Assembly: GCA_950022655.1 (NCBI GenBank)
Contig: OX465583.1
Location: forward strand, 67,383,652 to 67,447,651
Origin: Alentia gelatinosa
Lineage: Eukaryota; Annelida; Polychaeta; Phyllodocida; Polynoidae
DNA length: 64,000 nucleotides
Direction: 5' to 3'
The position numbers and the translations under genes are program-made. Below are positions 3,848-60,900 of this stretch, one piece after another (position 1 is the stretch's first letter; the number at the start of each line of letters is the position of its first letter). The notes below the pieces were generated by a model. It made no database searches and had not been told where the DNA came from. It was given only the letters and a program-made list of their open reading frames with translations.

Positions 3848-4250
3848 TAGAAGGAAACCCACGAGATGAAAATAGCTTGGTCCGTACTCCATCGAGTTTG
3901 ACTGCAGAGTAATTCAAGAAGCGAAGCTGAGTAAACTATGTAGCAGTCAAACGAGATGGAGTGCAGACTAAGTTATTTTCATCGAGTAGATTTCTGATTT
4001 TATCTCACCCCTTATAACATCATTTATTGATTAAATGAACCACCCATTTTTTTTATCTTTTTTTTGTAAATGTCTTTTATTTGAAGCAAAAGTTGCTACA
4101 ACATTTCTTTATCATTATATTCTACATCAGTCAACCAATAAAAGTCGTATGAATATACGAGTTATTGAGTATTGAGTACATGAACTTCATGGCCGTGGAG
4201 TACGAGAACCTAACGTTAAGCCTATGGAGAAAAATGCTGGGGTGAGATAA
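3848..4250. mobile_element. Foldback element family E, copy 1
   Basis: Reverse-orientation copy of 44843-45160. The long hairpin has arms GATGAAAATAGCTTGGTC.. and ..TTATTTTCATCG, with a centre TTCAAGAAGCGAAGCTGAGT (3913-3932). The outer end CTTAAGCC-like module at 4213-4250 (GTTAAGCCTATGG ... GGGGTGAGATAA) is shared with many other elements here. Confidence 0.8.
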
Positions 4251-5119: not shown

Positions 5120-5190
5120 CACGAGTTTGGATGTGCCACAATCTTCATCGAGGTGAAGCGGAGTGATGATTATGGCACATCCAAACGACT
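5120..5190. repeat. Foldback hairpin
   Basis: Arms GAGTTTGGATGTGCCA... and ...TGGCACATCCAAAC surround a centre TCATCGAGGTGAAGCGGAGT (5145-5164), a variant of the conserved foldback centre. Confidence 0.8.
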
Positions 5191-9393: not shown

Positions 9394-9702
9394 ATACTAT
9401 CGTAAAACTGGATGAGTTTTAACCTTGGCCACCGTATGCCACGCGTGGAGTTTGGCATAGTGACTTCATGAGGCAAAGCCGAGTGAAATCCGGGGCCAAA
9501 TCTCCAGGAGTGGCATGTGGTGGCCAAAATTAAAACAAATCAGGTTTAGATTTTATACTACCCTGTCTCCTCGATTTTGGAATATTACGTGATAACAATT
9601 CTGTATGCCACTAGTGACATATAAAACTCTGTATGCCAGTCAGTGTGGCATACGGAAACTCAATGTTAAGCCTATGGGATTTTATATTAGGGGTAGGATA
9701 AA
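9394..9702. mobile_element. Foldback MITE family C, copy 1
   Basis: Hairpin arms GAGTTTTAACCTTGGCCACC and its complement GGTGGCCAAAATTAAAAC, with centre TCATGAGGCAAAGCCGAGTG (9466-9485). The outer end is AATGTTAAGCCTATGGG ... TATTAGGGGTAGGATAAA. Nearly the reverse complement of 59488-59795. Confidence 0.85.
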
Positions 9703-10059
9703 GGGACTGAAGCCAGTCTAGACGGATCCCTGTGTGGGTGTTTACCTCACGGCACCGCCCGCCTAATGTATACAATAGTGTCTTTTATGTCGCATGCCAA
9801 CTGTGGCACTGGGTCAGGACCCCATGTAAAAACTAGACTGGTGAACTTCATGCCTTGGTTGGTTATCAATGTGGAACTGATACTGTTGCATATTGTCGTT
9901 CTCATTTTTCATCATTAGCTATAGGTTAGCTTTAAGCCTTGATGTATACTACACCTGTTTATACTTTATCGAGTTCAAATTGTATATTGTACATTGATTA
10001 GTGCCTTATGCCCTCTTTTTCTTCATATTTACTTATATTTAAGCAGAACTGTCTTTAGA

Positions 10060-10460
10060 AACGTATTTTTAACCACTACGAGTTTGGATGTGTAGTAATC
10101 GTCACTCGGCTATGCCTCGTGACGATACGGAGCATCAAAACGAGTGAGCGTAGTGGTTCAAAATACGTTTCGAAAGCGGTTCTGTTTTTATCTCACCCCC
10201 AACACGGACCTTACAGTCGATTTTAAGCAATAATATAACATTACTCCCGATAGATAACTGTCGCTCTCCATGTTTGTGCCAGTGCGGTTCAAGCAATGGT
10301 GCCGGAACTATTTTTTTTAACTCGACGTTGATTGGATGCTGCGTTGCTACGTATCTCTGCCACCACCATGGCGTAGTACTGTAACTTTACGTAGGTAATC
10401 GTTGCGTATTTTCTTTTAACGTTAATCCTATGGGAGAACCTATACCAGGGGTGGGATAAA
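10060..10460. mobile_element. Foldback element (family E/C-like)
   Basis: The hairpin starts AACCACTACGAGTTTGGATG, with centre CACTCGGCTATGCCTCGTG (10103-10121). A TTTATCTCACCCC module lies at 10187-10199, and the other end GTTAATCCTATGGG ... GGGGTGGGATAAA at 10420-10461. Confidence 0.7.
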
Positions 10461-11664: not shown

Positions 11665-12600
11665 GGCCTAATAGGCCGTCGCTCGGACAAACACGGCCGA
11701 GTCTGGCCACATGTGTATATGGAAACACAGCAATCACACCTAAAGTGTAAACGGTCGGTATTATTGCAGGAGTGTTGGCTTTTAACAGATTGAATCGCTG
11801 GAATAAATACACAGTATTGACTGGTTTCAGATACAAGCGGCCGTATTCTCCGAGGAGTTGACGTGTAGTAATATCCGTGCGTATGTGAGGATATTGCGTA
11901 TCTCCGAAGAGCATACAACGGCTTTTATCTGAAACCAGTCTATATTGTATCTTTATCATCCACCTTTACTGGACAAGTGGCATGTCGATATCAGTTTTTT
12001 TAGTTATGTACTATTTTTCCATACGCACTATTTTCCCGTATGCGCGACCCGGAGCATACACCATATATCCATATGCGCCCGGTATGTCCATACAAACTCC
12101 CTATGTGTTTTCTATGGACACTTTGTATTAGGTGGATATATCTGTATGCTCCGGGTATGGCGATACACACTCCCTATGTGTTTTCCATGGACACTTTGTA
12201 TTAGGTGGATAATAAACTAGGGTATTGTATCCACGGCTTTAGGCTGTCTAAACTTCATAGTCGATAATTATCTTGGTTTTAACTTGGAAAAAGGTAAGCA
12301 TGTTATTAGCTAGCCCTGTCAATGTATTATTGTGCATCCAGTTTCGGTGGTCCTGTTTTATCTAAGGTATACCTTAAGTATTATTGAGGTGATATGCATG
12401 TATGACACATCAAATTTGAACTGGAATACCATGGTATACGATACAATCACTGTTACTCATATAGAAATGTTTTATAGGGGTATTATAAACGTATTACATT
12501 CACACACTCAATGGTTTAATGCTAAACAATACGTTGCCAGGCGGGTTGTTTGGCTGTAGGCATTGCGTAACCTAGCAAATAAGGTGGAAAAATGTCTATT
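11665..12600. mobile_element. Repeat family Q, copy 2, with nested insertions
   Basis: Tandem with copy 1. A foldback is nested at about 11820-11945 (GGTTTCAGATACAAGCGGCC ... GGCTTTTATCTGAAACC), as are two units of the 73-bp minisatellite family R (12085-12215). Q sequence resumes at about 12216. Confidence 0.7.
12085..12215. repeat. Minisatellite family R (73-bp unit), ~2 copies
   Basis: The unit CTCCCTATGTGTTTTCTATG, then GACACTTTGTATTAGGTGG, then TGTATGCTC.GGGTATGG is shared with 43064-43262 and 51124-51650. Confidence 0.85.
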
Positions 12601-12724: not shown

Positions 12725-12910
12725 ACGAAATACATGTATAATATCGTAAAACCGGATGAGTTTTAATCTGGACTCCCGTATGCGACGACTGGAGTTTGGC
12801 GTAGTGATATCACGAGGTGGAGCCGAGTGATATCCGGAGCCAAAACTCCAGGAGTCGCATACGGGAGCCCAGATTAAAACGAATAAGGTATTGATTTTAT
12901 CCAACCCCCT
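12725..12910. mobile_element. Foldback MITE family C, copy 2
   Basis: Arms GAGTTTTAATCTGGACTCCC and its complement GGGAGCCCAGATTAAAAC. The centre is CACGAGGTGGAGCCGAGTG (12811-12829). Arm sequence differs from copy 1 at several paired positions, so pairing is kept. Confidence 0.85.
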
Positions 12911-15639: not shown

Positions 15640-15955
15640 CACTATCACTATTATTATTATATACCTATGTCCGAATGTCTATTAGATACTGCCCGCTGCT
15701 AGGGGTGCAGTAATAATAGTGTTTGTGCCCGCTGTGACTGCGACTTTGTATGTCATTAAAATGGTGTTTTTTCACCAATTAGAGGTATAATAAGCAAACA
15801 TCCTTACTGTAGACGAAATGGTTCTTGTTCTCGGTCAGTCGTCGATTTCATACGGCCTTCCGCCTTTGGCGTCAGACAGTATGAAATCGACGACTGACCT
15901 CGAACAGGAACCGTTTCCTCCACAGTAAGGACGTTTCCTAATATTACTCCGGTCA
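15640..15955. mobile_element. Foldback element family F, copy 1
   Basis: Starts TATTATATACCTATGTCCG. The hairpin GAAATGGTTCTTGTTCTCGG...TCGAACAGGAACCGTTTC encloses GGCCTTCCGCCTTTGGCG. The second copy is at 44285-44592 with paired arm changes. Confidence 0.85.
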
Positions 15956-16878
15956 ACCACTCGTAGTTTACGGCCGCCCGTCCAAAAATTTCGTCGATAA
16001 TTGTCTATATTTGAGAACGCAATAATGATAGAGGGAAAAAAGCGGATAGTTGACCAAGAGGCAAAACAAGTAAAACCTGAGACGAGAGAATTTGGGAAAA
16101 GAGCAAGTTATCAGCAGACCTTCCGGCCTGAATCTAATTTTCCTAAATGATAATATATGGAGACATGGTTAGTGTGGCTGAATGGAATATGTTCAGAGAT
16201 ACTTTGGTTGAAAATATTCACCAAGTTCGGAGAACGAGGTGAACATATCCGATCAAATTATCGAGGAACATATGAAATTCAGAGACACTCACTATGTCTC
16301 CTTATTGTTATATACCTAGAAGCCATTTTACAACTTCACATTTTTTTCGAGAATGAAAGTGGTCACGTGGTACGGAAAGACGTATGAATATTCTTTCGTC
16401 ACTTAGCGACGAACGGAATCTGTACTACTGGTCAGTAAAAGTGGGACATTCGCCCACAGGTATATAGTAATTTATCATACTACTAACCCATATGGCTAGG
16501 TTTTTGTTTTTTAAAAAGATACAAAGGCGTCTTGAACCATGCCCTGTAGAGAATAATAGCCCTACTGTTTCCCGAACGACAGAACCTATTTTACGTGTGA
16601 GAAGATGAACAGACTAATCTGACATCCTTAACAGAAGGGAGGTTTTTTTCATCTGATGTAGTCAGAGAGGTGACGGAAAGCGAACACTAATCTTCACTAT
16701 CAAGGCGAGGTGGCTGCATCTGTGAGGTCTCATCCACTAAAAGCGTCAGGAGGCAATCCCTGTGCCTCTCCCTGTGTTTAGACTCGTACTGTATACAGTC
16801 GTAATTTCTAGGTAAACACTGTTCATTGTTTAGAAGGAGTGTTCTACAGCTGACACGAGCTTTATCTATTTGAAATTA

Positions 16879-26017: not shown

Positions 26018-26606
26018 TTAGGCCTGGCATCCACCTACTACTATAATGATTTAAGACCTCCCCATGCTTTATAATGCAAAGTGTAAAAAATCATGGACAA
26101 TCGGGACTATCATTATCTTACACAAATATCCAGACAAGGAACATCGGCGTGCACGGTGATCGATTTTGAGGTACATCGTAAAGCCTATCGTAGACATAGA
26201 CAATAATCGATAATTTTGTGGACAGGCGGCCGTAAACCACGAGAGGTTGACGCGTAGTAATACATAAGCGCTAGCTACAACGCCAACCTCGAGTGGTTTA
26301 CAGAGCCGCCTATCCACATAACCATCGTTTGTTGTATTTATTATGCTTCTTTTCGTATAGTTTAAACCCAGTAATTGCCATTTTAAAGGGGATTATTTCT
26401 TTGCTCTATAGCAAAAAGGGACTATTTTTCCCGTATACCATGGTTTTGAGTCTGTATACCACAGATGTGAATCCGTATTCCACAGTTATGGTATCTGACA
26501 GGTTTTTATACAATGGGTCGTGGTTTACTGAGTCCCCATACATTTTCAATGGTGTCTTTGTATCCGATGGATAATAAAGTTTTGAGCTCAGTGGATGCCA
26601 GGCCTA
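26018..26606. mobile_element. Harbinger-like MITE ends (family A relative) enclosing foldback D
   Basis: Left TTAGGCCTGGCATCCACCTA and right TGGATGCCAGGCCTAA are family A-type ends. Between them lies a family D foldback (hairpin GGCCGTAAACCACGAGAGGT ... CCTCGAGTGGTTTACAG, 26232-26306), whose right part matches 2025-2226. Confidence 0.7.
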
Positions 26607-28882: not shown

Positions 28883-29925
28883 CCAGCAGAGATCTTGCGC
28901 TCTACTTCCTGTGGCCGCTTGTATCTCTGCCCCAACCTGCCTGTTTGTTAACCTGCCTGTTTTGGCCCAAAATACGCCACCGCTTATATATCTGTCTATA
29001 CCTGCCTGTTTGGGCCAAATATGGCCAATACGCCACTGCTTATTTATTACCCACCTGATACGGAGTCTCCATACTAAGCCTATGGAGATTACAGATCGCT
29101 ACTGAGGAGGATACGGACCTGCGTACCCTCCTAGGAGGATACGGATTTTTGAGATGAAAGTAGTCCCATTGAGATGAAAATAGTCCCAAACTTAACTTCT
29201 TAACTAAGTTGAAAAGTTTTCTAACGATCATATTTATTGCTTAAATCTAAAAATAAGTGAGTAATAAAAACAACATTACCATAATTTCGATCTGTGTGGC
29301 CGTATTCTCCTTGTAGTTGACGCTACGCAATACACCTCGCTATCGCTCGGAGTATTACTACGCGTCAACTACGCGGAGAATACGGCCACTCAGATCGAAA
29401 TCATGGTAATATTGTGTATATCTCTGCCCCAATCTGCCTGTTTGGGCCCAAATCTGTTTCTAAAATATCCTAAATTCTTAGGACTTCCGGGTGTATTTTG
29501 TGGTTTACTTGTAAATAGAAATGTACATATCCATATGATAAATGATATACACTCATTTCTGTCATTTGTTATGTCAAATCAGACAGTCATAGGGAATACT
29601 TTCTTCAGTGGATAGCACATCATGTGTTGCAGGCTTTGTTTGTCAACATGACACATGTGCTCATTCAAAGGGGCAGTCTAATCAACTGTAGATTCACATA
29701 ATAAAGTGGTTTAGAACTAAAAAAAAAAAAGAAGGAAACTGTGAAGCTCCTTTAACAATTCCTATGTTTCTATACACTTGATATGTGAGTTGTCTGACTT
29801 GTAGATCTTTTGACAGTTGCTTTGTTTTAAATCTGAAATGGTTGCTGGTCTCCCCTGTCTTTAGTGGATACCCAGACAACCAGCTTTGGGTTGGGGCAGA
29901 GATTAAGCCAGCGCTAGCTGGGGCG
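28883..29925. mobile_element. MITE family O, interrupted and truncated copy 4
   Basis: 28883-29030 matches the left end of family O with a duplicated TGCCTGTTTGGGCC segment. 29410-29910 matches its main body (GGATAGCACATCATGTGTTG, AATCAACTGTAGATTCACAT). Between them are other sequence and the foldback at 29275-29410. The right end is lost at a poly(G) run (29925-29938). Confidence 0.7.
29275..29410. repeat. Foldback hairpin
   Basis: TTTCGATCTGTGTGGCCGTA...GTAGTTGACG pairs with CGTCAACTAC...TACGGCCACTCAGATCGAAA. The centre CCTCGCTATCGCTCGG (29335-29350) is a variant of the shared centre. The same arm type occurs at about 11820-11945, and half of it at 33000-33045. Confidence 0.85.
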
Positions 29926-30080
29926 GGGGGGGGGGGGGGAGCTCGCTTTGAAAGCACTGCGCCCTGCTACAGGTGAGTATGTCAGGTAACTGTCTGACCA
30001 GGACGCTACCAGAGTACTAGGGCAAAGAGTAAGTGCATCATTGAATGAGCATACAATTATAGATGAATAACAATTAAAAG

Positions 30081-30435
30081 GTTTGGGATATATATTTATC
30101 AACTCACCCCTGTTATTTTATCCCCATAGACTTAACATGGGAACTTATATCCAACACCCATGGAGTATTTAGAAAAAAATACTCAATGGGGAATTAGGGT
30201 TTGGGATATATTTATCATCTCACCCCTGGTATTTTTCCCCATAGACTTAACATTGGGAACTTATATCCAACACCCATGGAGTATTTAGAAAAAAATACTC
30301 AATGGGGAATTAGGGTTTGGGATATATTTATCATCTCACCCCTGGTATTTTTTCCCCATAGACTTAACATTGGGAACTTATATCCAACACCCATGGAGTA
30401 TTTAGAAAAAAATACTCAATGGGGAATTAGGGTTT
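30081..30435. repeat. ~117-bp tandem repeat, 3 units, made of the foldback end module
   Basis: Each unit has TTTATCATCTCACCCCTGG, then TTTCCCCATAGACTTAACA, then CCATGGAGTATTTAG. Starts near 30081, 30197 and 30314. A single diverged unit lies at 58290-58400. Confidence 0.9.
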
Positions 30436-41221: not shown

Positions 41222-41460
41222 TTATTATATACCTGTGGCTGTATGAACTACGTATACTACCCGCTCTTACCCATGGCGTATTTATACCCGTACGCCACAC
41301 TGTGACGTACGGGGTATGTGATCACGAGACTAGGTAAAATTTCGCCATTTTTAGGTATAGAATAATACGAAAACAGGCTACGGCATCGGGATGTATGTGA
41401 TCAATAATTTCACAGCGTATCTTTGACGTACGAAGACAGTAAGCCAGTTTCCGTATATTA
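41222..41460. mobile_element. Foldback element family Y, copy 1, left hairpin arm missing
   Basis: Aligns with 41571-41870 over TATTATATACCTGTGGCTG...GGTATGTGATCACG...TTTCGCCATTTTTAGGTAT. It then jumps from CAGGCTA to CGGCATCGGGATGTATGTGA, skipping the whole left arm. Confidence 0.8.
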
Positions 41461-41570
41461 ATTTCATTCATTCAGATCTCAAGTCAAAATGCATAATTCC
41501 ATAAAGCACTTAAGACCATTAGTGATATAAGTGATAAACAAGATATGAGAAATACAAGCTATATATATCA

Positions 41571-41870
41571 TATTATTATATACATATATGGCTGTAGGAC
41601 CTACACATACTGCCCGCTTCTACCTATGATGTATATATGGCCGTACATCACACTGTGACGTACGGGGTATGTGATCACGTGACAAGCTGAAATTTCGCCA
41701 TTTTTAGGTATATAATAATACAAAAACGGGCTGACTGTCTTAGTACGTCAAAATACTTGGTAAAATTGTTGATCACATACATCCCTCTGCCTTCGGCATC
41801 GGGATGTATCTGATCAATAATTTTACCGCGTATTTTAGACGTACGAAGACAGTAAGCCAGTTTCCATATA
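41571..41870. mobile_element. Foldback element family Y, copy 2, complete hairpin
   Basis: Arms ACTGTCTTAGTACGTCAAAA...GATCACATACATCCC and GGGATGTATCTGATC...GACGTACGAAGACAGT. The centre is TCTGCCTTCGGCA (41786-41798). The related end ATATACCGGTGGCTGGATGA occurs alone at 63495. Confidence 0.85.
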
Positions 41871-41879
41871 TTATATATA

Positions 41880-43063: not shown

Positions 43064-43262
43064 GTATGGTGATACTTTGTATCAGGTGGGTATATCTGTA
43101 TGCTCTGGGTATGGTGATACACACTCCCTATATGTTATCTATGGACACTTTGTATGAGGTGGATATATCTGTATGCTCTGGGTATGGTGATACACAATCC
43201 CTATATGTTATCATATGCTATTCATATATGTTTTCTATGGAAGCTTTGTATTAGGTGGATAG
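43064..43262. repeat. Minisatellite family R, ~2.5 units
   Basis: GATACTTTGTATCAGGTGGG and following 73-bp-spaced GTATGCTCTGGGTATGGTGA units. Confidence 0.85.
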
Positions 43263-44284: not shown

Positions 44285-44592
44285 TAATATTATTATATAC
44301 CTGTGTGTGAATGTCTATCAAATACTGCCCGCTGCTAGGGATGCAGTAATAATAATGTTTGTGCCCGCTGTGAGTGTGACTTAATAAGTCATTAAATTGT
44401 CGTTTTTCTATCGATTTAAGGCATTTAATAATAAGCAAACGTCCTTACTGTGGACGAAATGGTTCCCCTTCTCGGTCAGTCTTTGATTTCATACTGCCTT
44501 CCGCCTATGGCGTCAGGCAGTATGAAATCGACAACTGACCTCGAACAGGATCCGTTTCGTCCACAGTGAGGACGTTTCCTAATATTACTGAC
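44285..44592. mobile_element. Foldback element family F, copy 2
   Basis: Matches 15640-15955 from TATTATATACCTGTGTGTGA to AGGACGTTTCCTAATATTAC. The centre CCTTCCGCCTATGGCGTCAG is kept, with paired differences in the arms. Confidence 0.85.
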
Positions 44593-44842: not shown

Positions 44843-45160
44843 CTTTATCTCACTCCGGTATCTTTCTCCATAGGCTTAACGTTAGGAACTCATACTCTAC
44901 GGCCGTGAAGGTAGTATACCCAATACTCAATGGCTAATGGAGTGATTCATTTGATCAAGAAATAATGTTATACGGGGTGAGATAAAATCAGAAACCCACT
45001 CGATGAAAATAACTTGGTCTGTACTCCACCTCATTTGACCTCATTTGACCTCATTTGACCGCAGAGTAATTCACTGAGCTTCGCTTCGTGGATTACTCTG
45101 CAGTCAAACTCAGTGGAGTACGACCAAGCTGTTTTCATCTTGTGGGTTTCCTTATAATAC
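44843..45160. mobile_element. Foldback element family E, copy 2
   Basis: The end TTTATCTCACTCCGGTATC, then CCATAGGCTTAACGTTAGG; inner GGGGTGAGATAAAATCAGAA; hairpin with arms CTTGGTCTGTACTCCACC and TGGAGTACGACCAAG; centre CACTGAGCTTCGCTTCGTGG (45072-45091). CTCATTTGAC is tandemly tripled in the left arm. Confidence 0.85.
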
Positions 45161-48342: not shown

Positions 48343-48604
48343 TTATAGTTGCTATGCTATGAGAACTCACTTAGGTTTGGTTCAGATATTGTCAGTATAT
48401 AAGGCAGATAACTATATATGCCTAATAGTCTGGCATCGAGAGGGGTATACCTTGCTTTAGCGTCCAGACAGTTTTTTATTGATGATTATTTATCTCCAGA
48501 ATCTTCTGATTTCAAATATGGGCCACGTTATCGTTGCATATAATTTTTCAATTTTATTCCTCTGGCTAAACTTGTACCATGGGTGAGATAATAAGATAAA
48601 ATGT

Positions 48605-48735
48605 ATATACCTTACTGGTACATACTGGTGTACCGCGTTTCTTTCTTGAAATAAAAATATTCCATGAGCTTGCAGAGCGAGTGGAATATTTTCATTGAAA
48701 GAAATAATGTACACGACTATGTACCAGTAAGGTAA
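48605..48735. repeat. Foldback hairpin 3' of CLN3
   Basis: ATACCTTACTGGTACATACT pairs with GTACCAGTAAGGTA. TTTCAATGAAA-type inner arms surround CCATGAGCTTGCAGAGCGAG (48663-48682), a diverged member of the shared centre. Confidence 0.8.
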
Positions 48736-48827
48736 TAAATTTGTGTTTTATTATCTACCTTCAAATATAAGTATTTGATGAATTACATGAGGAAATGTGA
48801 CGACATCCAAGCTGGATTCAAAATTCA

Positions 48828-48990: not shown

Positions 48991-51900
48991 CTGCACCAAC
49001 AGAAAACAACAATATACATAAACATGAAACATATACGAGTTTAACCTTACTACTTACTCTCCATCATCATTACACTTTTCATGCAAATGCCACTTATTAT
49101 CATGGGCAATATCAGTAGCTTATAAATGATGTTTCATGTCCTAGCATATTCATGTTTAATATCTTGTTTAATATCTTGTCTTGTCTTGTATTTGTATCAT
49201 AATTTATGTCTTAGCATGTCATGACAAAGTGTTAGCCACTCTTTTTGGGTACTTTTTTCACAATCCCTTGCCAATACTAACAAACTTAGTGTTCATAATT
49301 TTTCAATATTCATAATATTTGCTATCGATGTTAATGTAACTCTTATGTGATTCTAGATAACACTTTGAGCTGTTGTACTTTGGTCCAGATTTATAATTCT
49401 ATAATGGAAGACCACCTACTCTTCATGTGAGTTATATATGAACGAAAAAAACTTTTTTTAGATATCATCATTTGAAAGTCACTTACAATCTCAAAGAAGT
49501 ATCAAATGGAAAAACATATTTAAAACGAAACATTGAGTTAAAAGATCAATGCTCGATAGGAACAGAAAATCAAATAAATAAATAAAATAAAATTTTGAAA
49601 AAGGAAATAACAAACATGTGCCGCTCCTGGGTCAAGGCGGCCGCTTATTTAACAAGACTAGGGACCCGTTTCACTAGCTCCAAGACATTACCCAAAGTTA
49701 GATATAAATAAAGGCAGCAGCAGTGGCATCAACAGTGGGAGAAGTCAAATCTTGTTTCAAAAGCAATGTCTAGTTTGCTCACCTTGTTGGTGCCACTGTT
49801 TAGTCCCAAGACTCACCCGGCGTTTACACTAAACAAAAGTACTGCCCACGGCCAAGGCCTTGGGCAGTAATTATTCCAAGTCTTACCTCGCAACTTTGAC
49901 TTTCTCTAACCGGAACATAGTTTCCCTATATTCCTAGAGCAACACTTTTCCCACATTTTTAGGAGCAACGAACCTCAGGGAGGGTAATTTTAGGTGGTAT
50001 ACAGTAGAACCCCGCCTGACGGACACCCCACGTAAGCGGACACCCCGCGTCAGCGGACACTTTTGCTCGGAACGGAAACTTTGCCCTCTATTAGATGTTT
50101 AACTTAACCCCGCGTAAGTGGTCACCTTGCGTAAGCGGGCACCCCGCGTAAGCGGACAGTTATTTCGGTACGAAAAGGCCTAAAACCCCGTGTAAGCGGA
50201 CACCTTCGACGGACCCCCTACCAAAGATAGATTAATCTGTCTTTTTTCATTGTGTATTCATAGAAAATAATTTTGTAATTCCAGGTTTAGTAACATATTA
50301 ATAATAATATTCGGATATCAGAAAATGGATTTCAGATCTATTATCGCCTCTGTCTCCCCTATTCATCGGTATATAACACATTTATATTTGGCTGGAAGAC
50401 ACTTGAAACCCCCACGTTTTACTGTACTTACCTCTTCAGTTATGGTGTAAAATGCGTTGGCATAGATGGCGCCACCGAGCAGGCCTTCGTAAAAAGAAAG
50501 TCCGAACACAAACCAAACACTGGGCAAGAACTTGTAGAAGATTTGAAGCAGGAACAAAACCATATTCAACGTCTGTAATAAAACGGAACGTGTGTAGTTT
50601 CTCAAGTATGTAGATTCCAATGCCTTTTTATGTATGTGTATCCTCTTCACATGCGACTATAATTATCTCGTGAATTTCTTTTATCTAAATTATCCCATAT
50701 AAAATAGATGGAGACATTTTTCTAATCCTAATTATTACGTATTTACATTGAGTAATCTACGAGATAGACATAGTGCATGTGGGACATATGATAAAGCTAT
50801 TATCCTATCCGTAACGAATTATCTATCTTATCTTATATCAAGCCAGAAGTGGTAGTTCCCTAGCTAAACGCTAGAGGACGTGGCGGCGCTGGCGTGTGCT
50901 TACACTGGCCACTAGAGCAACACTCCGTTAGCACTGGCGGGGTGAAATCCGTGGCCGCCTTGACCGACTTGCTATAAGTGTCTGCCAATCTCCACCAAGA
51001 TTCTTTGTATTGCTTGGACAGTCTATCATTTTGTACTATTGAACCCAAATTAGCATTCTATTATTTCCTTTCGTATATCTAAAAAAATATGAACATAAAG
51101 CTAGGTTTCATTATCAATTTGTTGATAAACATTCCCTATGCGTTTTCTATTGACATTTTGTATTAGGTGGATATATCTGTATGCTCTGGGTATGGTGATA
51201 TAGACTCCCTATGTGTTTTCTATGGAGACTTTGTATTAGGCGAATATATCTATATGCTCCAGGTATGGTGATACTCGTACGCTCCCTATGTGTTTTCTAT
51301 GGAGACTTGGTATTAGGTGGATGTATCTGTATGCTCTGGGTCTGGTAATACACACTCCCTATGTGTTTTCTATGGACACTTTGTATAAGGTGAATATATC
51401 GCTATGCTCTGGGTATGGTGATACACACTCCCTATGTGTTTTCTATACACACTTTGTATTAGGTGGATATATCACTATGCTCTGGGTATGGTGATACATG
51501 CTCCCTATGTGTTTTCTACGGACACTTTATATTAGGTGGATAAACATGTTTGCTCTGGGTATGGTGATACACATTCCCTATGTGTTTTCTATTGACACTT
51601 TGTACTAGGTGGATATATCTGGATGTTCTGGGTATGGTAATACACACTCCCTATGTATTTTTTATGGAAAATAAACTGAGATATGCTCCCCAATGGGTGT
51701 AACATCACAAACCTGAAGAATGGGCAGAATCCATAATTTCTGTATGCGTATGCAGGGCAGAGATGATCGTGATATAAAAACACCAAGCTGGTAGAGCATC
51801 TGGTACCTATAAGATGAAGTAAATGGCAATTACCCTGTGTGCAGCACATGCAGGTATAAAGATGCACTTGTTGTTCTGTGTCTAGAGACTAAAGAAGAAA

Positions 51901-54900
51901 CCAACAAGTTTTGGTCAAAGTCGTTGTTTTCAACGTGTTTGATGCGGAGTGATTTGAACAAGGCGACAGCCGAGAGAATATCACATAGCATTCAAACGAG
52001 CTGGAGAATGACTTCTTTGACCAAAACGAGTTGCTTTCTGTATTTATTTCACCCCTGTACACACTAAAACAATGGACAACACACACAATATAGACCATGG
52101 AGAACTGACTGCAATACTCATAGAGGCATGGCGAACGAGTTCCCAATGTTAAGCCTTTGGACATTTATGCCAGGGGTGAGATAATAAAAAAGAAATTGAT
52201 GAGTGCTTGGATTGTGTGCCTGTTTGCTACGAGTTTGGAGCATGCAGTAGCATGAACGAGGCGATAGCCAAGTGAATATTCCGAAGTGCCCCAAATGAGA
52301 CACGAATATATGTTTCTGATTTTATCTTAGCCTGGAAATATCTGTTTATCGGCCATTGAGTATGAGTTACCATTCTCACAACCCTGTTGGTAACGAGTTC
52401 CTATTGTTAAGCCTGTGGATGTTTATTCCAGGCTAAGATAAAACTTATACCAGGCTAAGATATGACCTTTTTCTTGTTTATTTTTTCGGAAAGGTTTGTT
52501 CAGGGTAATGCCGAACTCAGCATGTGGCTGTTCTTCCGTCTGGTCCCTCTGTCTTTAAAGTTACAAGAAGCTCTCAATGTTTAAGAACCGAGACTAATGT
52601 GAGTTCTTTCGATGATATGGAAAGAGCACAATCCCTTTCAAAATGTATTATAAACTGTTTCAGTAGACATGTACTTACCATCTATATTGCTGATCTACAG
52701 GTACCGAGCTGTCTTCGAAGTAAACAAGTTCATCCTTAAAGGGAAAAAAAAATCTTAAATGTTTTCTTAGAATTTTCAAATATACTAGAAATGGTAATCC
52801 AGTATGAGGAAAAATTGTTTTCGCGTTACAAGAAAAGAGGAAAAGAGAAATCTGGGTTAGTCCGTGGGTATTCCTTTCCAGAAACAAACCTTGAAGGACA
52901 CATATAAGAAAGAATATGAAGAAAGAAATTAATGAGTGCTTGGTAGGTGTCCTCATTCGCCATTGAGTTTGGAGTGCGCAGTAATATGAACGAGGCGATA
53001 GCCGAGTGAATACTCTGAAGCACCCAAAATGAGATAGTGAACAGGGACTCAGACCAAGCACGAATATGTTTCTGATTTTATCCTAGCCTGGAAATAATTA
53101 TCTGTTTATCTCCCATTGAGTATGAGTTACTGTACTCGCAATCCTGTTGAGAACGAGTTCTTAATGTTAAGCCTATGACAGTTTATACTAGGCTAAGATA
53201 ATATAAGATATTGAATGTCCCACTAATGTGGGTGTTCCACCAGCACACAAGATCAAAGGAGATTTACCACAATTTGGTTGTCTTGCTAAATCTCGCTAGG
53301 TTTCAAGTAATCACATGCACCTTAAGCATTAAGCAACAGTATGATTAACCTCCACAATTGTGGCCGCAATAGATCACAGTATGCTACGATATGTCGGGAC
53401 AACCAAATGTTTTTAACATAACATTAACAGACATAACATGGCAAATCCGTCGTGCCTGTGGAACCAACCCATAATGTGGCGCTTCCACCAACACGCCCGA
53501 CGACTCACGATGTGGTCGTCGGGTTACATCGCCCTAGGATTGACCCGTCGTGTGCCGCCAGGCCGCGAGGCATCGGGTTGGTTAAGCAGCTCGTGTTATT
53601 TGTCGCGACCTATCTCGCCTAGCCGCGTAGTGTCGGGCCAGGTATTGCATCATGATATAGGTCACCCAACGCATCGCGAAAGGGGTTAATTGGGCTTCCA
53701 CCAGCACGCGTTGCTGCATGGCTATACGCGATTCTACCCTCAGAAATGTATCGGCTAGGGGGCTGTATTGTCGTGAATAGTCCTGGGTGGTCGTCCTTGC
53801 CCATGCATGCATGCGGCGCCTGCCGACAGAAAGTTAAATTTTTGAATTTTTTTTGGCTTGGTGTAAATACTGCTTGGAAATATGTTTGTTTTGTTCTGTA
53901 ATTAATGATAGGCCGTATCGATTCCATTTCTATGTGGATATCGCCCATCACAAATGCAAGCACAAAACAAAAAAAAATCCCATCATGCACCAGGCAAAAA
54001 AAACATTTCCATGATTCTACATCGCGCTCCCTCAGCTTTTCTCGGCTTTTTCCGCCAGTCGCATGGCCGTCACGTCCCCTGGCACATGCCTCGGCCAGCT
54101 GGTCACTTCGCTGCTGACCACGACCAGGAAAACAACGACAAACCCATGTGCTACACGGTACCCGCCCACTCCACTCCACTCCACACGCTCTCATTTTTCA
54201 CGATGCCGCCCAAACGAACAACCACTGCTGCCTCAACTGCTTCCTCCACTGCCGAAGATCGTGTAGAGACCCGGCAAGTTCGCCTCGCCGATCTCAGCAA
54301 CGCAGAAGAGATACTGGATCTTTTTGCGGCTCTGCAGGATCAACAAGAGGAAATTGTCCTAGCAAATTCCTCAAGTTCTGCTGTTCGGATGCAGCAGGTG
54401 GGGATCAACGTTTCTGCGATCCCCAGCAGGCAAGGACAGTCTCTGCTTCACTCGTCCCTCCCGGTGGTGGAAGCAAGGTTCCTCCCCCCCAACAACCAGA
54501 ACACCGACGATCAGGAGGAACAAGAGGACGGAGACAAAGAGGAAGAAGATGACGAGGACATCGTGCCGCCATCCCGGCACCAAACACCGAGGAGCCCGCC
54601 ACGGAGGAATACCTCCGGTTGAAGCAGCCGGATCTTTGTCATCTTTGGGAGGCCCATCGGTACCTGTACGAACTGGGCCAACCACTCTACCACGATCCCC
54701 AGGCCAGGAAGAGTGCCATTCGGCGGATGGCGCAGGAATTGGGCCTCGACGGTGAGTTTTTTAAAAATTATTTATCACTTGTGACCCATTTGTATGTCTA
54801 TGTAATTATACCCAGATCGTGGTTAACTGTCTTTCTTCCATATTGTTGTATAACTAATTGTATGCTCCTCAAAATGTGTGTATTTAGGTTTGCTGTAATG

Positions 54901-57900
54901 GCTTGTGGTGGGAATGGCGGGAAAAGCTAGGTTATCCGGCGAGAGTGTCCAATTGTGGGTCTTTTCCATTTATTCATGCCATGTTCTATTGTTCTATTGT
55001 TGATTTTTTCACGTTATAGGCAACATTTTAGACCACCAGTTTGGCCTAAAAATCACCTGCAGAGACGAGTAAGGTCGAAACTATTGAGCACCAAAAAGAT
55101 CACTTTTCAGCCTTATACAAAAGACAGAGCACAAGTTCACCACCTCTACACCAGATGGCAGGCAGTACCATGTGCACCCTGCACAGGGCAGTAACACCAG
55201 TAGGGACACCAGAAAAGTACAGTACACAGTTTTCTATTGGCGTACATATTTTCCCGCTGCTCTTTGTCTGTCACAACAGCCAATCACAGACAAGAATAGG
55301 CCTACTGATCATGTGACCATGTGATCATGTGATCAACAGTAGCCAATACAAGTCTTGCTCTGCGAAGAGACGAAAACTTGCAAAGGTCCAACCGCAGTGG
55401 TGGCACAGCCAAAGTGAACAGAACACCATTTCCAGAGTCACTTAATACTTTGAGAATATACGTTTGAGATTACATTCTCCAATCTTTTAAATGCATATCA
55501 TTGATTCACTTAACAACTGTCATTGTAGCCTCCAGATAGACTTATTCAGAGACGCTAGTGGTACACTTCAATAGTAGCTTTAGCACTAAGCCTCGTTCTT
55601 AATGGATCCGGAAATGTTGTTCTGAGCACGGGTATCTACCGTTTTAGCGGGTTATCCTTGTCTCCCTATTGTCGCGTGGGTGGGCAAGTATCGATACATG
55701 CTTAAAGGCATATCAGACAATTTGGCTTGAAAATCAAAACCCATGTCAATTTCCTGAAAATTTTATATGATGATCTCCAAGTGTTGTGGAACACATATCT
55801 AACTTAAATATCATGGTAATATTACAAAAGAATACACAGGAATTCTAATGGTTTTCATATAGTAAAACCCATGTCAGTTTCTTAAAACTTTCACATATTA
55901 TAGGAAATGTATAGAACAACACATTTAAGTTTTAAAAACCATAGCTCACCGTCCTTGTTTTTGAATAAATTTAAGACAACTATATTTTACAGTACATTTC
56001 CTATGTAAGTCAGTCAAATGTAAATTAACCTAATTTAGCTATTGGGTTTGGTCAAACTCGATGATATGTTATACTTTACTCATTTGGTATTAGAGTAAGT
56101 CAAGGAAACTAGATTTGATTGATAATCGCCAAAATTTTAAAATCACCAGTTGTCGCCACTGAGTATGGAAGGATATGCCTTTAACGGATATCATGAATGT
56201 ATAGACGAGGTGCACAGCTTCAGCGACTGCTGGTAAGTGACCGGGTTTATGCTCCTCACCTCCGATATCAGGTGTGAGCGACCTGCCGACCTATTTAGTG
56301 CCTGTCCCATTGGTTTATGTGGTCAGTTTACCTGTACGCTCAGTGTAATTGGACACGGTTTGACCGGGGTGCTGGTCTGTGTTGAGTTTTTATGTTTTTG
56401 TGTCTGCCCTCTAGTGTGAGGTACTTGTAAAAAAATTCGGCCACAGGGGGCGTCATAGGTCCCATCCGACCACCGACCGTCCACGGCAGAAAGAATTTTA
56501 CCACTTTAAAGGATATCAGACTGTGTCATGCTCACCAATCCCTGGTTGATGAAAAATTCCATGAAGTAGACCACCATCAATGGGAGAATGAATCGCCGAA
56601 GGAACTTCAAGGAATAAAAATGTGAAAGATGTAAAAGACAGAATGATCAATAACAAAAACTTCTGTTTATAATATCAAAAGACGTCACGAGTTTGAGTCT
56701 GAGTTTATTTATGTCACACATTTTGTTGGCTCCGTAATTTCACGAGTCGAAGATGGAGTGACAATGCGGAGACAACAAAATGAGTCACATGATTCTTTAT
56801 ATGGAATGAGTTGTCTTCCTGGAATGATTTCACGAGGTCTAGATCTGAGTGATATCTGTAGTGGAAGACAATGAACGCCATGTAAATAATCAGATAAAAT
56901 CGAGACATTTAGATTTGATCCGATCCCGTCACATATTTCTAACTTCATATGTCATGCATGGCATATAGATATTTTATGTCATAACTGTGGCATACAGTCA
57001 CTCCATGCCTATGGGGATTTATATGAGGGGTAGGATTAACTCAATCACGGGTCTGTGACTCAATACACAAGTCAACATAAGACCAGAAATAACGATCACA
57101 CTGATACCCATAGTAATGTTTATACTTACAAAAATCATTTTCAGTCTAGATTTGAATTCAAACCACACACGTTCACCTGCAAAACAAATACACAAACAAA
57201 ATAAATATCAATTTAAATTAGTACTTGTCTCGCTTATCATATATGGTACAAACCCATAGTACGCCTGCACACGGGCACTCTCTCCAGTTGGTGGGGATTG
57301 GAGAATATTCATTTCCAATTTTCTCCATGGCGTGTGTGCAGTAAAAACATTTCCAAATACGACACCCACGCCATGGAGAAAATTCGGAAAAAAATGTACC
57401 TCATAGTGTACCTACACATGACTACGAACTATACTTACATTTAGACATCTCCTTTGCGAGTAATCGTGTACTTTGGTCAGGTTTTTCTTCGTTCGACTGA
57501 TTTTCCATGATGTACTTTTTCCTCGGGGCTAAGTTAATAGTAGGTGGCATAACTATGACTACAGAGTACCTGAAAACATCAGAATGCTCACAGTTGTCAA
57601 TATTATACACTTTTTCTCATTATCGATTAGCATTATGCAATTAGTAGGAAAAGCTGACAAATATAAGGATACATAATTTAGATGATTTCAATTCTTACTA
57701 TGCTTTTTTCTATTAGTTCCAACTGTATGATGAATATTGTAATAGATACTGAAACTAGAAATAAATATGTATATATGTATTTTCAAAGATACTAAAACTA
57801 GAAATAATAAACATGTATTGTAATAGATACTAAAACTAGAAATAAATGTGTATATATGCAGTGTAAAAGATACTAAAACTAGAAAAATAAGTATATATAT

Positions 57901-60900
57901 ATATATATATATGTATTGTAATAGATACTAAATTTACAAATAGATAGGTATATGTATTGTAAAAGATACTAAAACTAGAAATAATAAACATGTATTGTAA
58001 TAGATACTAAAACTAGAAATAAATGTGTATATATGTAGTGTAAAAGATGCTAAAACTAGAAAAAAACTATATATGTATTGTATAAGATACTGAAACTAGA
58101 AATAAATACGCACACTATGAGCATGGTTATTGGGACACAGATCATGAGTAGGATGGTCAGTCGGGGAGACAAGCCAATCGCCGAAAGTGCAGCATAGGCG
58201 AATGCTGGTAACAGCAGAGAGGCTCCGGATCCCGACGAATAAGATGCCAGCACGCTCCTGAGCAGAGAAAGAGATTTATGAAGATTTTAAAGCTTTATCT
58301 CACCCCTGGTATTTTTTCTCCATAGACGCAACATTAATAACATATATCCAATGCCCATGAGATATTTAGGAAAATTATCGAATGGGGTTTATGTCACAAA
58401 TATTTGCCCATTAGTCAATTTGAGATGAATTTAGAAACCTATTCAAGTTTAGGGTCAGAGCTCGATCCCATCTTGTTTGTGAATTAGTACGCGATTCAAA
58501 CTATAGTATACATACGGTTTCTTAGGTTTTTATATTTTTTTTATATTTGCATCGTTTATTTCCAAAGTACCATGGTACACAGATTGTAATTAGCATACAT
58601 TTTTCCTTCAGAAGAGCATGGAAGTTGCCTTCCCTGTTTTAACACTGGTATTTTTTCGCCTCTTTTTAATCATCCCTTCTAATTTTGAAAAGGTTACTGG
58701 AGAACTCGACCTGAAATGAACTCGACCCGTAGTTGGCAGAAGAACACGACCCGTTTTGGTGAAATCGATTGGAGAACTCAACCTGATACAGATATTTATG
58801 AGTAAGACTTTTTCATATAGAAGTAAAGGTCTGACTAGTTAGCTTTTAGACAAATAAACTAACGGATATAGAAAATGAGTCTCATTTAGGTGTAGGGTTA
58901 GGGATAGGGATAGGTTAGGTTAGGGTTAGGGATAGGGTTAAGGTTAGGGATAGGGTTAGGGTTAAAGTTAGCGATAGGCTCAGGGGAAGGGTTTTCTGTT
59001 TGTTTCTTTCCTAGAGAAGACCGAATTTGAAGCCAAGATAACATACTTACTATTAATAATATATTAGTGTTTATCCACAGTTGTAATGAGATACTCGAGT
59101 TGGGAATATTTAAAACGGGTCGAGTTCGTCACAGATCGAATTCTCCAGTATTCATTGAAAACTCTATTCACAATGGGTGCAGCATTATTCTGTGTTTATA
59201 AATTGGAGTTTATGTAAGTGTCAATAAAATCTTTTGGAGAGCCCCATTGGTGTATTTGACAATATACTTATTGTACCTACTTGTCAAAGAATGTTGTTAA
59301 ACTGAGAAATGTCAATTCTCCAAAGCCAGATTGAATGCTTGCACAGACAACACCTGGAAAAAGATATTATGAATTGTTATCTTACAAGAGGTTGTTCATT
59401 TGGAATCCTTGAGGAGCCCAAACATAAGCTTGAGGAGGTTCAGGAGATGCAATGGCGGACTTAGCATGCAAACAGTGGCTACGTTTGCATGTTTATCCTA
59501 CCCCTAATATAAAATCCCACAAGCTTAACATTGAGTTTCCGTATGCCACGCTGACTGGCATACGGAGTTTTATATGCCACTAGTGGCATACAGAATTGTT
59601 ATCACGTAATATATCAAAATAGAGGAGACGCAGTAGAATAAAATCAAACCTGATTCGTCTTAATCTTGGCCACCGCATTCCACTCCTGGAGTTTTGGCTC
59701 CGGACTTCACTCGGCTTCGCCTCGTGAAATCACTATGCCAAACTCCAGTCGTGGCATACGGTGGCAAAGATTAAAACTCATCCATTTTACGATAGTATGT
59801 AGGCTTCTGGGATTTATCTGAATGACACCGGAAGCAGTTTATCCTGGATAAATAAACTCTATTGGGGTATCCCATAATTCAGTCTGTTTACAGGATTCGG
59901 TGTTCGCTGTATGGTAATAGACCCTTGATCCATAACCCGCAATTATTGCAGTTTAATGGTTTTTAAAAATCTTCAAATTGGAAATCGGATGCCAGAAATG
60001 GAAATTTCAATTATTTCTACGTATACATTTCAAATTATATTCAGTTTCTCCGATTATAAATCGGAAAATGATTGTTCATCAGAAGACAGGCGGCCGAGGT
60101 GCGGCCAGCCAGTTGGGAGTGGATCCTGTACTTACCAAGTGCGATATTAGGGAGTTTAGTAACCTCTAGAGGGTCTATGTGCGTGTGTATTTCTTACCCC
60201 TGGATTACAAAGTCCCCATTGAAAATGCATGAGGCCCAGTGAACCAATACCCATTGTTTGATAGTGGCAGTAAACCACACCCATGGTTTACGACTTCCAA
60301 AAGTACAAAGTTCATTGATTATATAGACAATAATCAATGGTTTTGTGGACACGTGGCCGTAAACCACGAGAGTTTGACGCGTAGTAATACACAAGGGCCA
60401 GTAAGTGTTACAGCGTCAAACTCTCATGGTTTACATAGCTTACAAATGCGGGTAGGTAGCGCTGTGCCCCTGTGTCTACTAGATATAACACTAGTGCTCC
60501 CATCTGGTCTCATGAAAACATAGCAGTTTCCCATAGACACTTATAGTTAAGCACTTACATTTTTAGATGGCCTTCCAATAGAAGTTAACATGTTGACATG
60601 CCAATTATTTGCATTTACTCTTTTCTGATATATGGAACTTATATCATTTGCAAAAATCAATAGAATATAGAAATTACCCAACTATCAGCATTTGCCTTAA
60701 ACCACACCAGAGCTAACGGGCATAGCAAGCGTTTGGTCTGGTGGTTAGTATAAGGTATGAGTAGCCAGGAACCATGGCCTATGTCTCCACATATTAGGTC
60801 AGGTAACGCCCACCATGTTTCTGGAGCATCATGGGTAACAGCCACCATTGTTCTGGTTCACTGTGGGTGTGGTTGCATCCAGCTAGTACCTGACTAATAC

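What the first reader, a model, noticed from the sequence alone, without database searches (positions are those of the whole stretch)
59488..59795. Foldback elements with different arms share one conserved hairpin centre containing GCGAAGC
Seen: at least ten foldbacks have a near-identical centre, about CACGAGGCGAAGCCGAGTG, at 59708-59726 (exact), 9466-9485, 12811-12829, 10103-10121, 5145-5164, 3913-3932 and 45072-45091. GGCGAYAGCC versions are at 51956, 52254 and 52988, and more diverged ones at 29335, 32898, 48663 and 56741. Their arms (20-60 bp each side) fall into several sequences that are not obviously related, while arm pairing is kept. The centre folds as CAC-GA-GGC-GAA-GCC-GA-GTG, that is, tandem G/A mismatches and a GAA triloop. 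Known: d(GCGAAGC) is an exceptionally stable DNA minihairpin, and tandem GA mismatches are stable in DNA. Inference: the centre is selected as a cruciform nucleator or a recognition site for a shared transposase, and arms can be replaced around it.
Basis: partly seen in the sequence, partly recalled or inferred. Interest (0 to 1): 0.8.

Follow-up and report, generated by a model that had tools for sequence, protein, structure and literature searches.

The report
Rolling-circle transposons ending in armoured DNA hairpins
The repeated hairpins are the ends of a very numerous family of small jumping DNA elements in a 1.2-billion-base eukaryotic genome, and the hairpin seems built to fold on only one DNA strand, from unusual guanine-adenine pairs and an ultra-stable tip, which hints at how the mobility enzyme recognises it.

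Summary
A near-identical hairpin tip (CACGAGGCGAAGCCGAGTG) recurs in the window and about 50,000 times in the 1.23 Gb genome (25,169 + 25,092 matches at up to 3 mismatches; 60 for the reversed control). The hairpins are one end of short, non-coding elements that insert without target-site duplication. Layout on the 'GA' strand: terminus, ~150-nt hairpin, TTATCYYACCCC, interior, its inverted copy GGGGTRRGATAA as the far terminus. This is the asymmetric subterminal-repeat plus hairpin layout of Helitron2/Helentron non-autonomous elements, but the hairpin has about 50-70 pairs instead of stems of 5-11. The target is not TT, and a Rep/helicase partner could not be searched for (tool busy).

New here: tandem GA/GA mismatches at the tip, about 25 bp below it in several families, and often again near the base. 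They lie on one strand, in families whose outer arms are unrelated. Tip loops are mostly GNA/GNNA minihairpins. This points to a strand-specific DNA structure read by the transposition machinery. I rate it a new variant of a known kind. The mechanism is inferred.

The parts
59493..59794 (-). Complete family-A element (302 bp), the element behind the finding; ends GGATAA (59493) and TATCG (59794)
   Evidence: boundaries agree with genomic copies and empty sites of other copies
59646..59794 (-). Terminal hairpin; GA/GA sites with left-arm plus-strand coordinates 59657, 59686 and 59713 (read as TC/TC on plus)
59708..59726 (-). Hairpin tip CACGAGGCGAAGCCGAGTG, GAA triloop
59631..59645 (-). Proximal (internal) subterminal inverted repeat, decayed in this copy
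59493..59504 (-). Distal terminus GGGGTAGGATAA (inverted copy of the subterminal repeat); conserved TGTTAAGC box at 59517-59530
9398..9701 (+). Family-A element (304 bp); tip loop AAA
12742..13194 (+). Family-A element carrying a 52-bp tandem repeat; GA/GA at 12758 and 12787 plus tip
3850..4250 (+). Family-B element; GA/GA at 3863 and 3894 plus tip; start approximate
44845..45158 (-). Family-B element, tandem duplication in one arm; hairpin-side end approximate
10030..10459 (+). Family-C element; tip inverted relative to the element; start approximate
51888..52184 (+). Family-D element, GACA tetraloop; start approximate
52185..52441 (+). Family-D element directly abutting the previous one head to tail; decayed hairpin
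52918..53201 (+). Family-D element, GATA tetraloop; start approximate
29044..29421 (-). Family-E element: hairpin 29264-29421, distal AGGTGGGTAATAA (2 mismatches to the expected inverted repeat)
41222..41877 (-). Family-I element: hairpin 41709-41877, subTIR TTATTATATACCT matched exactly by AGGTATATAATAA ending at 41222
11799..12216 (+). Family-M element: decayed hairpin, central 73-bp tandem repeats, distal AGGTGGATAATAAA at 12203 (1 mismatch)
26200..26577 (+). Family-J element: hairpin with GA/GA at 26243, distal GATGGATAATAA at 26566 (2 mismatches)
15785..15947 (-). Family-H hairpin (80-nt arms), GA/GA at tip and 26 bp below; no distal partner found
44428..44589 (-). Family-H hairpin, second copy (91% to the first); no distal partner found
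16150..16311 (+). Family-K hairpin, GGA triloop, tip AA/GA, AGA/GAG at 25 bp; no distal partner found
48582..48759 (+). Family-F hairpin, GA/GA at tip, non-GNA loop; no distal partner found
5125..5186 (+). Isolated inner hairpin (C5155), degenerate
56711..56790 (+). Inner hairpin G56751, GAA triloop, tip GA/GG

Best explanation
These are non-autonomous, rolling-circle (Helitron2/Helentron-like) transposons. Each ends in a hairpin of about 50-70 pairs placed just outside one of two subterminal inverted repeats; the other repeat forms the opposite terminus. The hairpin is built to fold as single-stranded DNA on one strand only: tandem G.A/A.G mismatches at the tip, about 25 bp below it and often near the base, closed by a GNA or GNNA minihairpin. 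When the Rep/helicase machinery opens the element, this strand folds. The structure is then recognised as the end mark, either as a helicase or polymerase stop (the 'terminator' role shown for the short Helraiser hairpin) or as a docking site. Shown here: the architecture, strand bias, copy number, TSD-less insertion and head-to-tail junctions. Inferred: rolling-circle mechanism, recognition by the transposase, selection on the G.A structure, DNA rather than RNA as the folded molecule.
For: Subterminal repeats: the sequence after the hairpin recurs inverted at the far end and changes in step between families (CTCACCCC/GGGGTGAG, CCTACCCC/GGGGTAGG, CTTAGCCTGG/CCAGGCTAAG, TATATACCT/AGGTATATA). 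No TSD: of 16 hand-picked insertion/empty-site pairs (10 insertions, from 51 queried), 14 have no gap at the junction; L030 has a 1-nt gap and L054 is gapped. Head-to-tail: L042, a full A copy joined GGATAA|TATCG to a copy truncated within its hairpin; L061, a hairpin-less A copy then a full one; L051, another family then A.

GA sites: 14 of 44 motif-free 2x2 loops. In tip orientation 11 of 31 stem loops are GA/GA and 0 TC/TC; 0 of 20,000 permutations reached 11. The consensus of 44 genomic A hairpins keeps GA/GA at tip, mid and outer sites (the tip is fixed by how copies were chosen). Strand: of 70 copies 58 canonical, 5 inverted, 7 unclassifiable.

DNA rather than RNA: loops are GNA/GNNA in 12 of 18 hairpins (hand tally), and 5 more are CANA, one CpG transition away. 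The four tetraloops (three in family D) are GATA or GACA, which fit the stable DNA GNNA class (PMC4686876 passages) but not RNA GNRA (recalled). Single G.T and A.C mismatches are balanced, 16 to 14. Pairs changed on both sides: 5 in A, 6 in D.
Against: No Rep/helicase gene was found; the search did not complete. Described Helentron/HINE hairpins are short and their target is TT, whereas here the flanks prefer RTAY and A. The 5'-hairpin expected of Helitron2 forms clearly only in the three D copies of 12 termini folded. By Helitron convention the hairpin is at the 3' end of the top strand, which would put GA on the bottom strand, so the simplest 'folds on the displaced strand' story needs the opposite polarity or a template-strand role. 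DNA nearest-neighbour energies favour the GA strand in only 12 of 18 hairpins (mean -1.6 kcal/mol); RNA parameters favour it in 15 of 18. Families H, K and F have no distal partner found. Mid-stem sites are not GA/GA in all: E and I have GC/AA there, D has no clear one. In H and B arm changes are mostly not compensatory (0 and 1), and every within-family comparison also has broken pairs, 1 to 16. Five sampled copies carry inverted hairpins.
Confidence: 0.6

Rival explanations
1. The hairpin works as RNA: transcripts of the element fold into long hairpins (small-RNA precursors or protein-binding RNAs), and the GA/GA and loop features are RNA structure.
For: Strand asymmetry also fits RNA; RNA parameters make the GA strand more stable in 15 of 18 hairpins, mean -5.9 kcal/mol. 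Tandem GA is stable in RNA too (recalled).
Against: No clear excess of G.T over A.C single mismatches (16 vs 14); tetraloops GATA/GACA are not GNRA; GNA/GNNA loops are described as extraordinarily stable in DNA (PMC4686876 passages); no Rfam family matched the window; the element lands without a target-site duplication, which argues against spread as a SINE.
Confidence: 0.13
2. Ancestral sequence only: one ancient element had this hairpin, long palindromes homogenise their own arms, and the tip persists because it lies at the fold where this does not act; no selection on GA/GA.
For: Families share weak inner-arm similarity; inverted hairpins show that arm exchange happens; compensatory changes are rare in two families.
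Against: Palindrome homogenisation should erase GA/GA mismatches inside the stem, yet they persist at similar depth in several families with unrelated outer arms; loops vary (GAA, GGA, GATA, GACA) while keeping the GNA/GNNA class.
Confidence: 0.17
3. Ordinary DDE-transposase MITEs with long terminal inverted repeats, the centre acting as a cruciform nucleator in duplex DNA.
For: Long inverted repeats and high copy number.
Against: Empty sites show no target-site duplication in 14 of 16 chosen pairs; the repeats pairing the element ends are short and asymmetric and the palindrome lies at one end; strand-specific GA argues against a two-strand cruciform.
Confidence: 0.07

Closest known systems
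HINE / DINE-1 (non-autonomous Helentrons; PMC4067079, PMC2374699, PMC7492417, passages seen)
   Same: Subterminal inverted repeats, one at or near a terminus and one internal; palindrome following the internal repeat; no coding capacity; central tandem repeats in some copies; high copy number.
   Different: Described stems are 5-10 bp (mite HINE palindromes) or 7-11 nt (DINE-1); here 47-68 predicted pairs with tandem GA/GA sites. Described target TT; here RTAY on one side and A on the other. The conserved TGTTAAGCCTATGG box is not mentioned in the passages seen.
Helitron2 (PMC3627910, PMC5148889, passages seen)
   Same: Short asymmetric terminal inverted repeats; the 3' one upstream of a hairpin; element begins with T. 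The quoted Fusarium FoHeli1/2 5' hairpins also have a C-GAA-G loop.
   Different: 3' repeat 20-30 bp from the end in Helitron2, ~150 nt here; the 5' hairpin is clear only in family D.
Helraiser / Helitron1 (PMC4778049, PMC5876387, passages seen)
   Same: A hairpin near one end with a shown terminator role; a loop change abolished its effect while a stem exchange did not.
   Different: 19-bp palindrome; 5'-TC and 3'-CTAG ends and A/T target, none of them seen here.
d(GCGAAGC) minihairpins, GNA/GNNA loops (PMC4686876, passages seen)
   Same: Same tip sequence and loop class.
   Different: Seen there in aptamer design; here it caps a transposon terminal hairpin.

Membership tests
Helitron2 / Helentron (HINE) | Asymmetric (subterminal) inverted repeats, one at the terminus | tested here: met
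   window: 10 of 17 hairpins have a plausible partner and 3 more by alignment; 4 (H x2, K, F) have none. Genome sample: 56 of 70 tips have the distal end
Helitron2 / Helentron (HINE) | Hairpin between the internal repeat and the other terminus | tested here: met
Helitron2 / Helentron (HINE) | Short stem (5-11 bp) | tested here: not met
   47-68 predicted pairs in nine copies of families A, B, D, H; 59 in the family-A consensus
Helitron2 / Helentron (HINE) | No target-site duplication | tested here: met
   14 of 16 chosen insertion/empty-site pairs without a gap at the junction, L030 1-nt gap, L054 gapped; family A only
Helentron (HINE) | Insertion into TT | tested here: not met
   family A: left flank T at -3 in 50 and A at -2 in 53 of 59; right flank A in 42 of 51
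Helitron2 | 5'-terminal hairpin involving the terminal repeat | tested here: inconclusive
   forms clearly in 3 of 12 termini (family D)
Helitron2 / Helentron | Autonomous partner encoding RepHel (HUH nuclease plus helicase) | not tested
   The genome search with PF14214 did not complete (20 tries)
Helitron1 | 5'-TC, CTRR-3' ends, A|T target | tested here: not met
   family-A ends are TTATC.. and ..CGATA
DDE-type MITE | Target-site duplication | tested here: not met
Replitron | Short direct terminal repeats and 2-8 bp TSD (PMC10741241 passage) | tested here: not met

The most novel reading that the evidence does not exclude
A lineage of rolling-circle transposons in which the transposase reads a strand-specific DNA structure rather than a sequence: a long hairpin carrying tandem sheared G.A steps at a roughly fixed ~25-bp spacing and a GNA/GNNA minihairpin cap, so the arm sequences are free to turn over and new families keep mobility as long as the pattern of G.A steps is kept.
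Probability: 0.33. Interest if true: 0.78.

Novelty: new variant of a known kind. Interest (0 to 1): 0.58.

Why it matters
As far as I know (recalled), how Helitron-type enzymes recognise the end of their element rests mainly on one reconstructed bat element with a 19-bp palindrome. Here tens of thousands of natural hairpin tips in many families point to a defined DNA structure, with positions and bases to mutate. If the G.A pattern is what the enzyme reads, it would explain how such families diversify while staying mobile, and would be a natural use of the d(GCGAAGC)-type minihairpin and tandem G.A steps in a genome-wide parasite.

Tried and rejected
Prokaryotic origin: rejected (longest stop-to-stop frame in the window 236 aa, no tRNA, no Rfam match); the genome is 1.23 Gb in 101 contigs. 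Host species: not identified. An ORF that looked to me like the tail of a reverse transcriptase (no Pfam match) and a MADF-like ORF found no homologue at E 0.001.

Relatives in other collections: the exact 19-mer found 14 contigs of bacterial or archaeal genomes and one viral contig. In several of the 14 it is a CCAC-GA-GGCGAAGCC-GA-GTGG hairpin; in the 50-nt flanks that I looked at none has the long-arm design; taken as chance or convergence. The element terminus pattern (exact match) found nothing in viral or prokaryotic contigs. The GATA tip found 4 viral contigs, none with the long-arm design in 60-nt flanks; a family-E tip pattern found none.

Covariance model: not built. Geminivirus-like TAATATTAC at the family-H end: noted, not pursued. 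Pairing of the terminal nucleotides with the subterminal repeat (a possible switch): seen in single alignments, not tested. The DNA-energy test gave only weak support for the GA strand and was kept as evidence against.

Literature: among the titles and abstract starts listed by searches I saw none on long GA-mismatched hairpins at Helitron ends. Only listings were seen, and most subscription papers are not in that library, so this does not show that none exists.

Full report
WHAT WAS CHECKED. The centre CACGAGGCGAAGCCGAGTG is at 59708-59726 on the minus strand; with up to 3 mismatches the window has 6 matches against 0.01 expected, and the 13-base core with up to 2 has 8 against 0.39. The listed foldbacks were folded and aligned arm to arm from the tip.

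WHERE IT IS. The window is DNA with almost no coding capacity: positions 67,383,652-67,447,651 of contig 5 in a 1.234 Gb assembly of 101 contigs, by its size a eukaryote. In that genome the 19-mer at up to 3 mismatches gives 25,169 forward and 25,092 reverse matches; the pattern read backwards gives 32 and 28. The tool calls counts of repeats lower bounds.

THE HAIRPIN IS AN ELEMENT END. A conserved box TGTTAAGCCTATGG lies 0.1-0.4 kb after many of the hairpins, followed by GGGGTGAGATAA, GGGGTAGGATAA or a variant. Alignments of the copies show one layout on the strand that reads GAGGCGAAGCCGA: a terminus, the hairpin, TTATCYYACCCC, an interior, the box, and the inverted repeat as the other terminus. 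The two repeats change together between families: CCTACCCC/GGGGTAGG in A, CTCACCCC/GGGGTGAG in B, CTTAGCCTGG/CCAGGCTAAG in D52259 (CCTAGCCTGG in D52993), TATATACCT/AGGTATATA in I, TCATCCACCT/AGGTGGATAA in M. With up to 2 mismatches within 3 kb, one search found a plausible partner for 10 of 17 hairpins (A9476, A12820, B x2, C, D52259, E, I, J, M; E, J and A9476 only with 2 mismatches; 0.07-0.52 hits expected per query). It missed D51961, D52993 and A59717, whose termini are seen in the alignments, which makes 13 of 17. H (2), K and F had none.

GENOMIC COPIES. I took 70 copies with an exact tip (30 and 40, all from contigs 1 and 2, the first listed; chosen for an exact tip, so tip conservation in this set means nothing). 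Of these, 59 begin with TATCGTAAAAC (up to 2 mismatches) and 56 have the distal end; in 58 the inner repeat follows the tip in the canonical order. The script also flagged 8 as inverted. Three of those (L042, L051, L061) are explained by another element's terminus just upstream, which leaves 5 true inversions (L029, L040, L072, L081, L082) and 7 unclassified (L042 among them). Of 51 copies with both ends within 700 bp, 25 are exactly 304 bp and 48 lie between 279 and 316 bp. The element in the finding is 59493-59794, 302 bp.

INSERTION. The flanks of these 51 copies were joined and compared with the window and the loci in hand (whose printed output was cut). From the hits that span the junction I picked 16 that were not microsatellites, from 10 insertions. 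In 14 of 16 the empty site aligns without a gap at the junction (the two L049 pairs have a 9-nt gap 5 nt away); L030 has a one-base gap and L054 is gapped. So there is no target-site duplication and no deletion in the clear cases. All of this is family A. The left flank prefers R-T-A-Y (54, 50, 53 and 49 of 59) and the right flank A (42 of 51); several empty sites show the TA step already there, so this is at least partly a target preference. Three copies sit directly behind another terminus: in L042 a full A copy is joined GGATAA|TATCG to an A copy truncated inside its hairpin; in L061 an A copy without its hairpin precedes a full one; in L051 the preceding element is of another family. In the window D52259 directly follows D51961. 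Such junctions could also be independent insertions next to a terminus.

THE GA SITES. A foldback scan that used no motif gave 33 foldbacks and 44 two-by-two internal loops; 14 were GA/GA or its complement TC/TC, and after merging strands no other class had more than 2. With 18 hairpins oriented by their tips, 11 of 31 stem loops were GA/GA and 0 were TC/TC; shuffling right sides among loops gave a mean of 5.0 and never reached 11 in 20,000 trials. Some of these hairpins were added because one search had shown GA/GA in them, so one search is the fairer count. Tip flanks were GA/GA in 11 of 18, one change away in 6 and further in one. The mid site is 21-27 bp below the tip: GA/GA at 25 in A59717 and A12820, 21 in B3923 and 26 in both H; GC/AA at 24 in E and 27 in I; AGA/GAG at 25 in K; no clear one in D, and A9476 has GT/GT in a shifted alignment. 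A strict tip descriptor found 14 structures of which 5 are GA/GA on one strand or the other, one of them in a microsatellite; five shuffles gave 21 structures with no GA/GA on the scanned strand (TC/TC was not counted there). In 134 kb of genomic DNA around the copies, with the A hairpins masked, 3 of 9 structures were TC/TC, against 0 of 2 in 3 shuffles. The 44-copy consensus of the A hairpin keeps GA/GA at the tip, mid and outer positions. Two exact-tip copies belong to another family (L035, L038) with unrelated arms that also show GA sites in the mid and outer stem, read by eye.

LOOPS. By hand tally, 12 of 18 tips have GNA or GNNA loops (GAA, GGA, GATA, GACA; C5155 has an irregular stem). 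Five have AAA or ATA preceded by C, one CpG transition from CGNA; one (F) is different. PMC4686876 (passages) states that GNA and GNNA loops with at least two G-C pairs make extraordinarily stable DNA minihairpins. The four tetraloops (three of them family D) have a pyrimidine in third place and so are not RNA GNRA loops (recalled).

ARMS. Between 10 family representatives, identity is 0.66 for tips (0.54 shuffled), 0.60 and 0.59 for inner arms (0.50) and 0.48 and 0.49 for outer arms (0.48 and 0.47). Within families, pairs changed on both sides number 5 between A12820 and each other A copy, 0 between A59717 and A9476, 6 in D, 1 in B and 0 in H; broken pairs in the same comparisons number 1 to 16.

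WHICH MOLECULE FOLDS. RNA selection should make G.T single mismatches commoner than A.C; they are 16 and 14. DNA energy parameters favour the GA strand in 12 of 18 and RNA parameters in 15 of 18, so energies alone do not decide. The loop class and the balance of G.T and A.C favour DNA.

COMPARISON. HINE and DINE-1 elements have subterminal repeats, a palindrome after the inner one, often central tandem repeats, and TT targets (passages of PMC4067079, PMC7492417 and PMC2374699); DINE-1 stems are 7-11 nt. Helitron2 has asymmetric terminal inverted repeats and hairpins at both ends (passages of PMC3627910 and PMC5148889). In Helraiser the hairpin acts as transposition terminator and its loop matters (passages of PMC4778049). 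The present elements share this layout, but the hairpin is far longer, the target differs, the 5' hairpin is clear only in family D (3 of 12 termini), and no RepHel partner could be looked for. I therefore call them Helitron2/Helentron-like and do not file them as members.

MECHANISM. The most economical reading is that the strand-specific hairpin marks one end for a rolling-circle enzyme. Which strand is mobile is open: by the usual Helitron convention GA would lie on the bottom, template strand, where a very stable hairpin could stop leading-strand synthesis at the terminus. If the polarity is reversed, the hairpin forms on the displaced strand near its 5' end. Finding the autonomous relative would help decide.

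Noticed in passing
L003, L004, L007, L008, L010, L011, L013, L014: The exact 19-mer also occurs in 14 prokaryotic contigs (about 2 expected by my own rough uniform estimate); in these eight it folds as a short hairpin with GA/GA below a GGCGAAGCC tip, without the long-arm design in the flanks viewed; may be a convergent DNA hairpin motif.
   Followed up: partly
window, about 15945 and about 44590 (family-H ends): The hairpin-side end of both family-H copies reads TAATATTACT, which contains the geminivirus origin nonanucleotide TAATATTAC (recalled); could be chance in AT-rich sequence.
   Followed up: no
L029, L040, L072, L081, L082; window 10112: Hairpins or tips inverted relative to their element, suggesting stem exchange or hairpin inversion.
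   Followed up: partly
L061 446-630 (oriented as): An A element that lost its hairpin between the outer GA sites, sitting directly before a full copy.
   Followed up: no
window 12063-12211, 43074-43217, 51123-51668: 73-bp tandem repeats (7.4 copies in the last array); the first array lies inside the family-M element; possible satellite-like repeats carried by these elements.
   Followed up: partly
window 30080-30435: Three tandem 116-bp copies of a related distal terminus (TGTTAAGTCTATGG .. CCAGGGGTGAGAT) without a hairpin.
   Followed up: no
window 54553-54930: ORF with a marginal MADF/Myb-like domain (PF10545, E 0.00015, 22.4 bits against a cut-off of 22), perhaps from a PIF/Harbinger-type transposon (recalled link).
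   Followed up: no
window 58893-58993: TTAGGG-like interstitial repeat (6-bp unit, about 17 imperfect copies).
   Followed up: no
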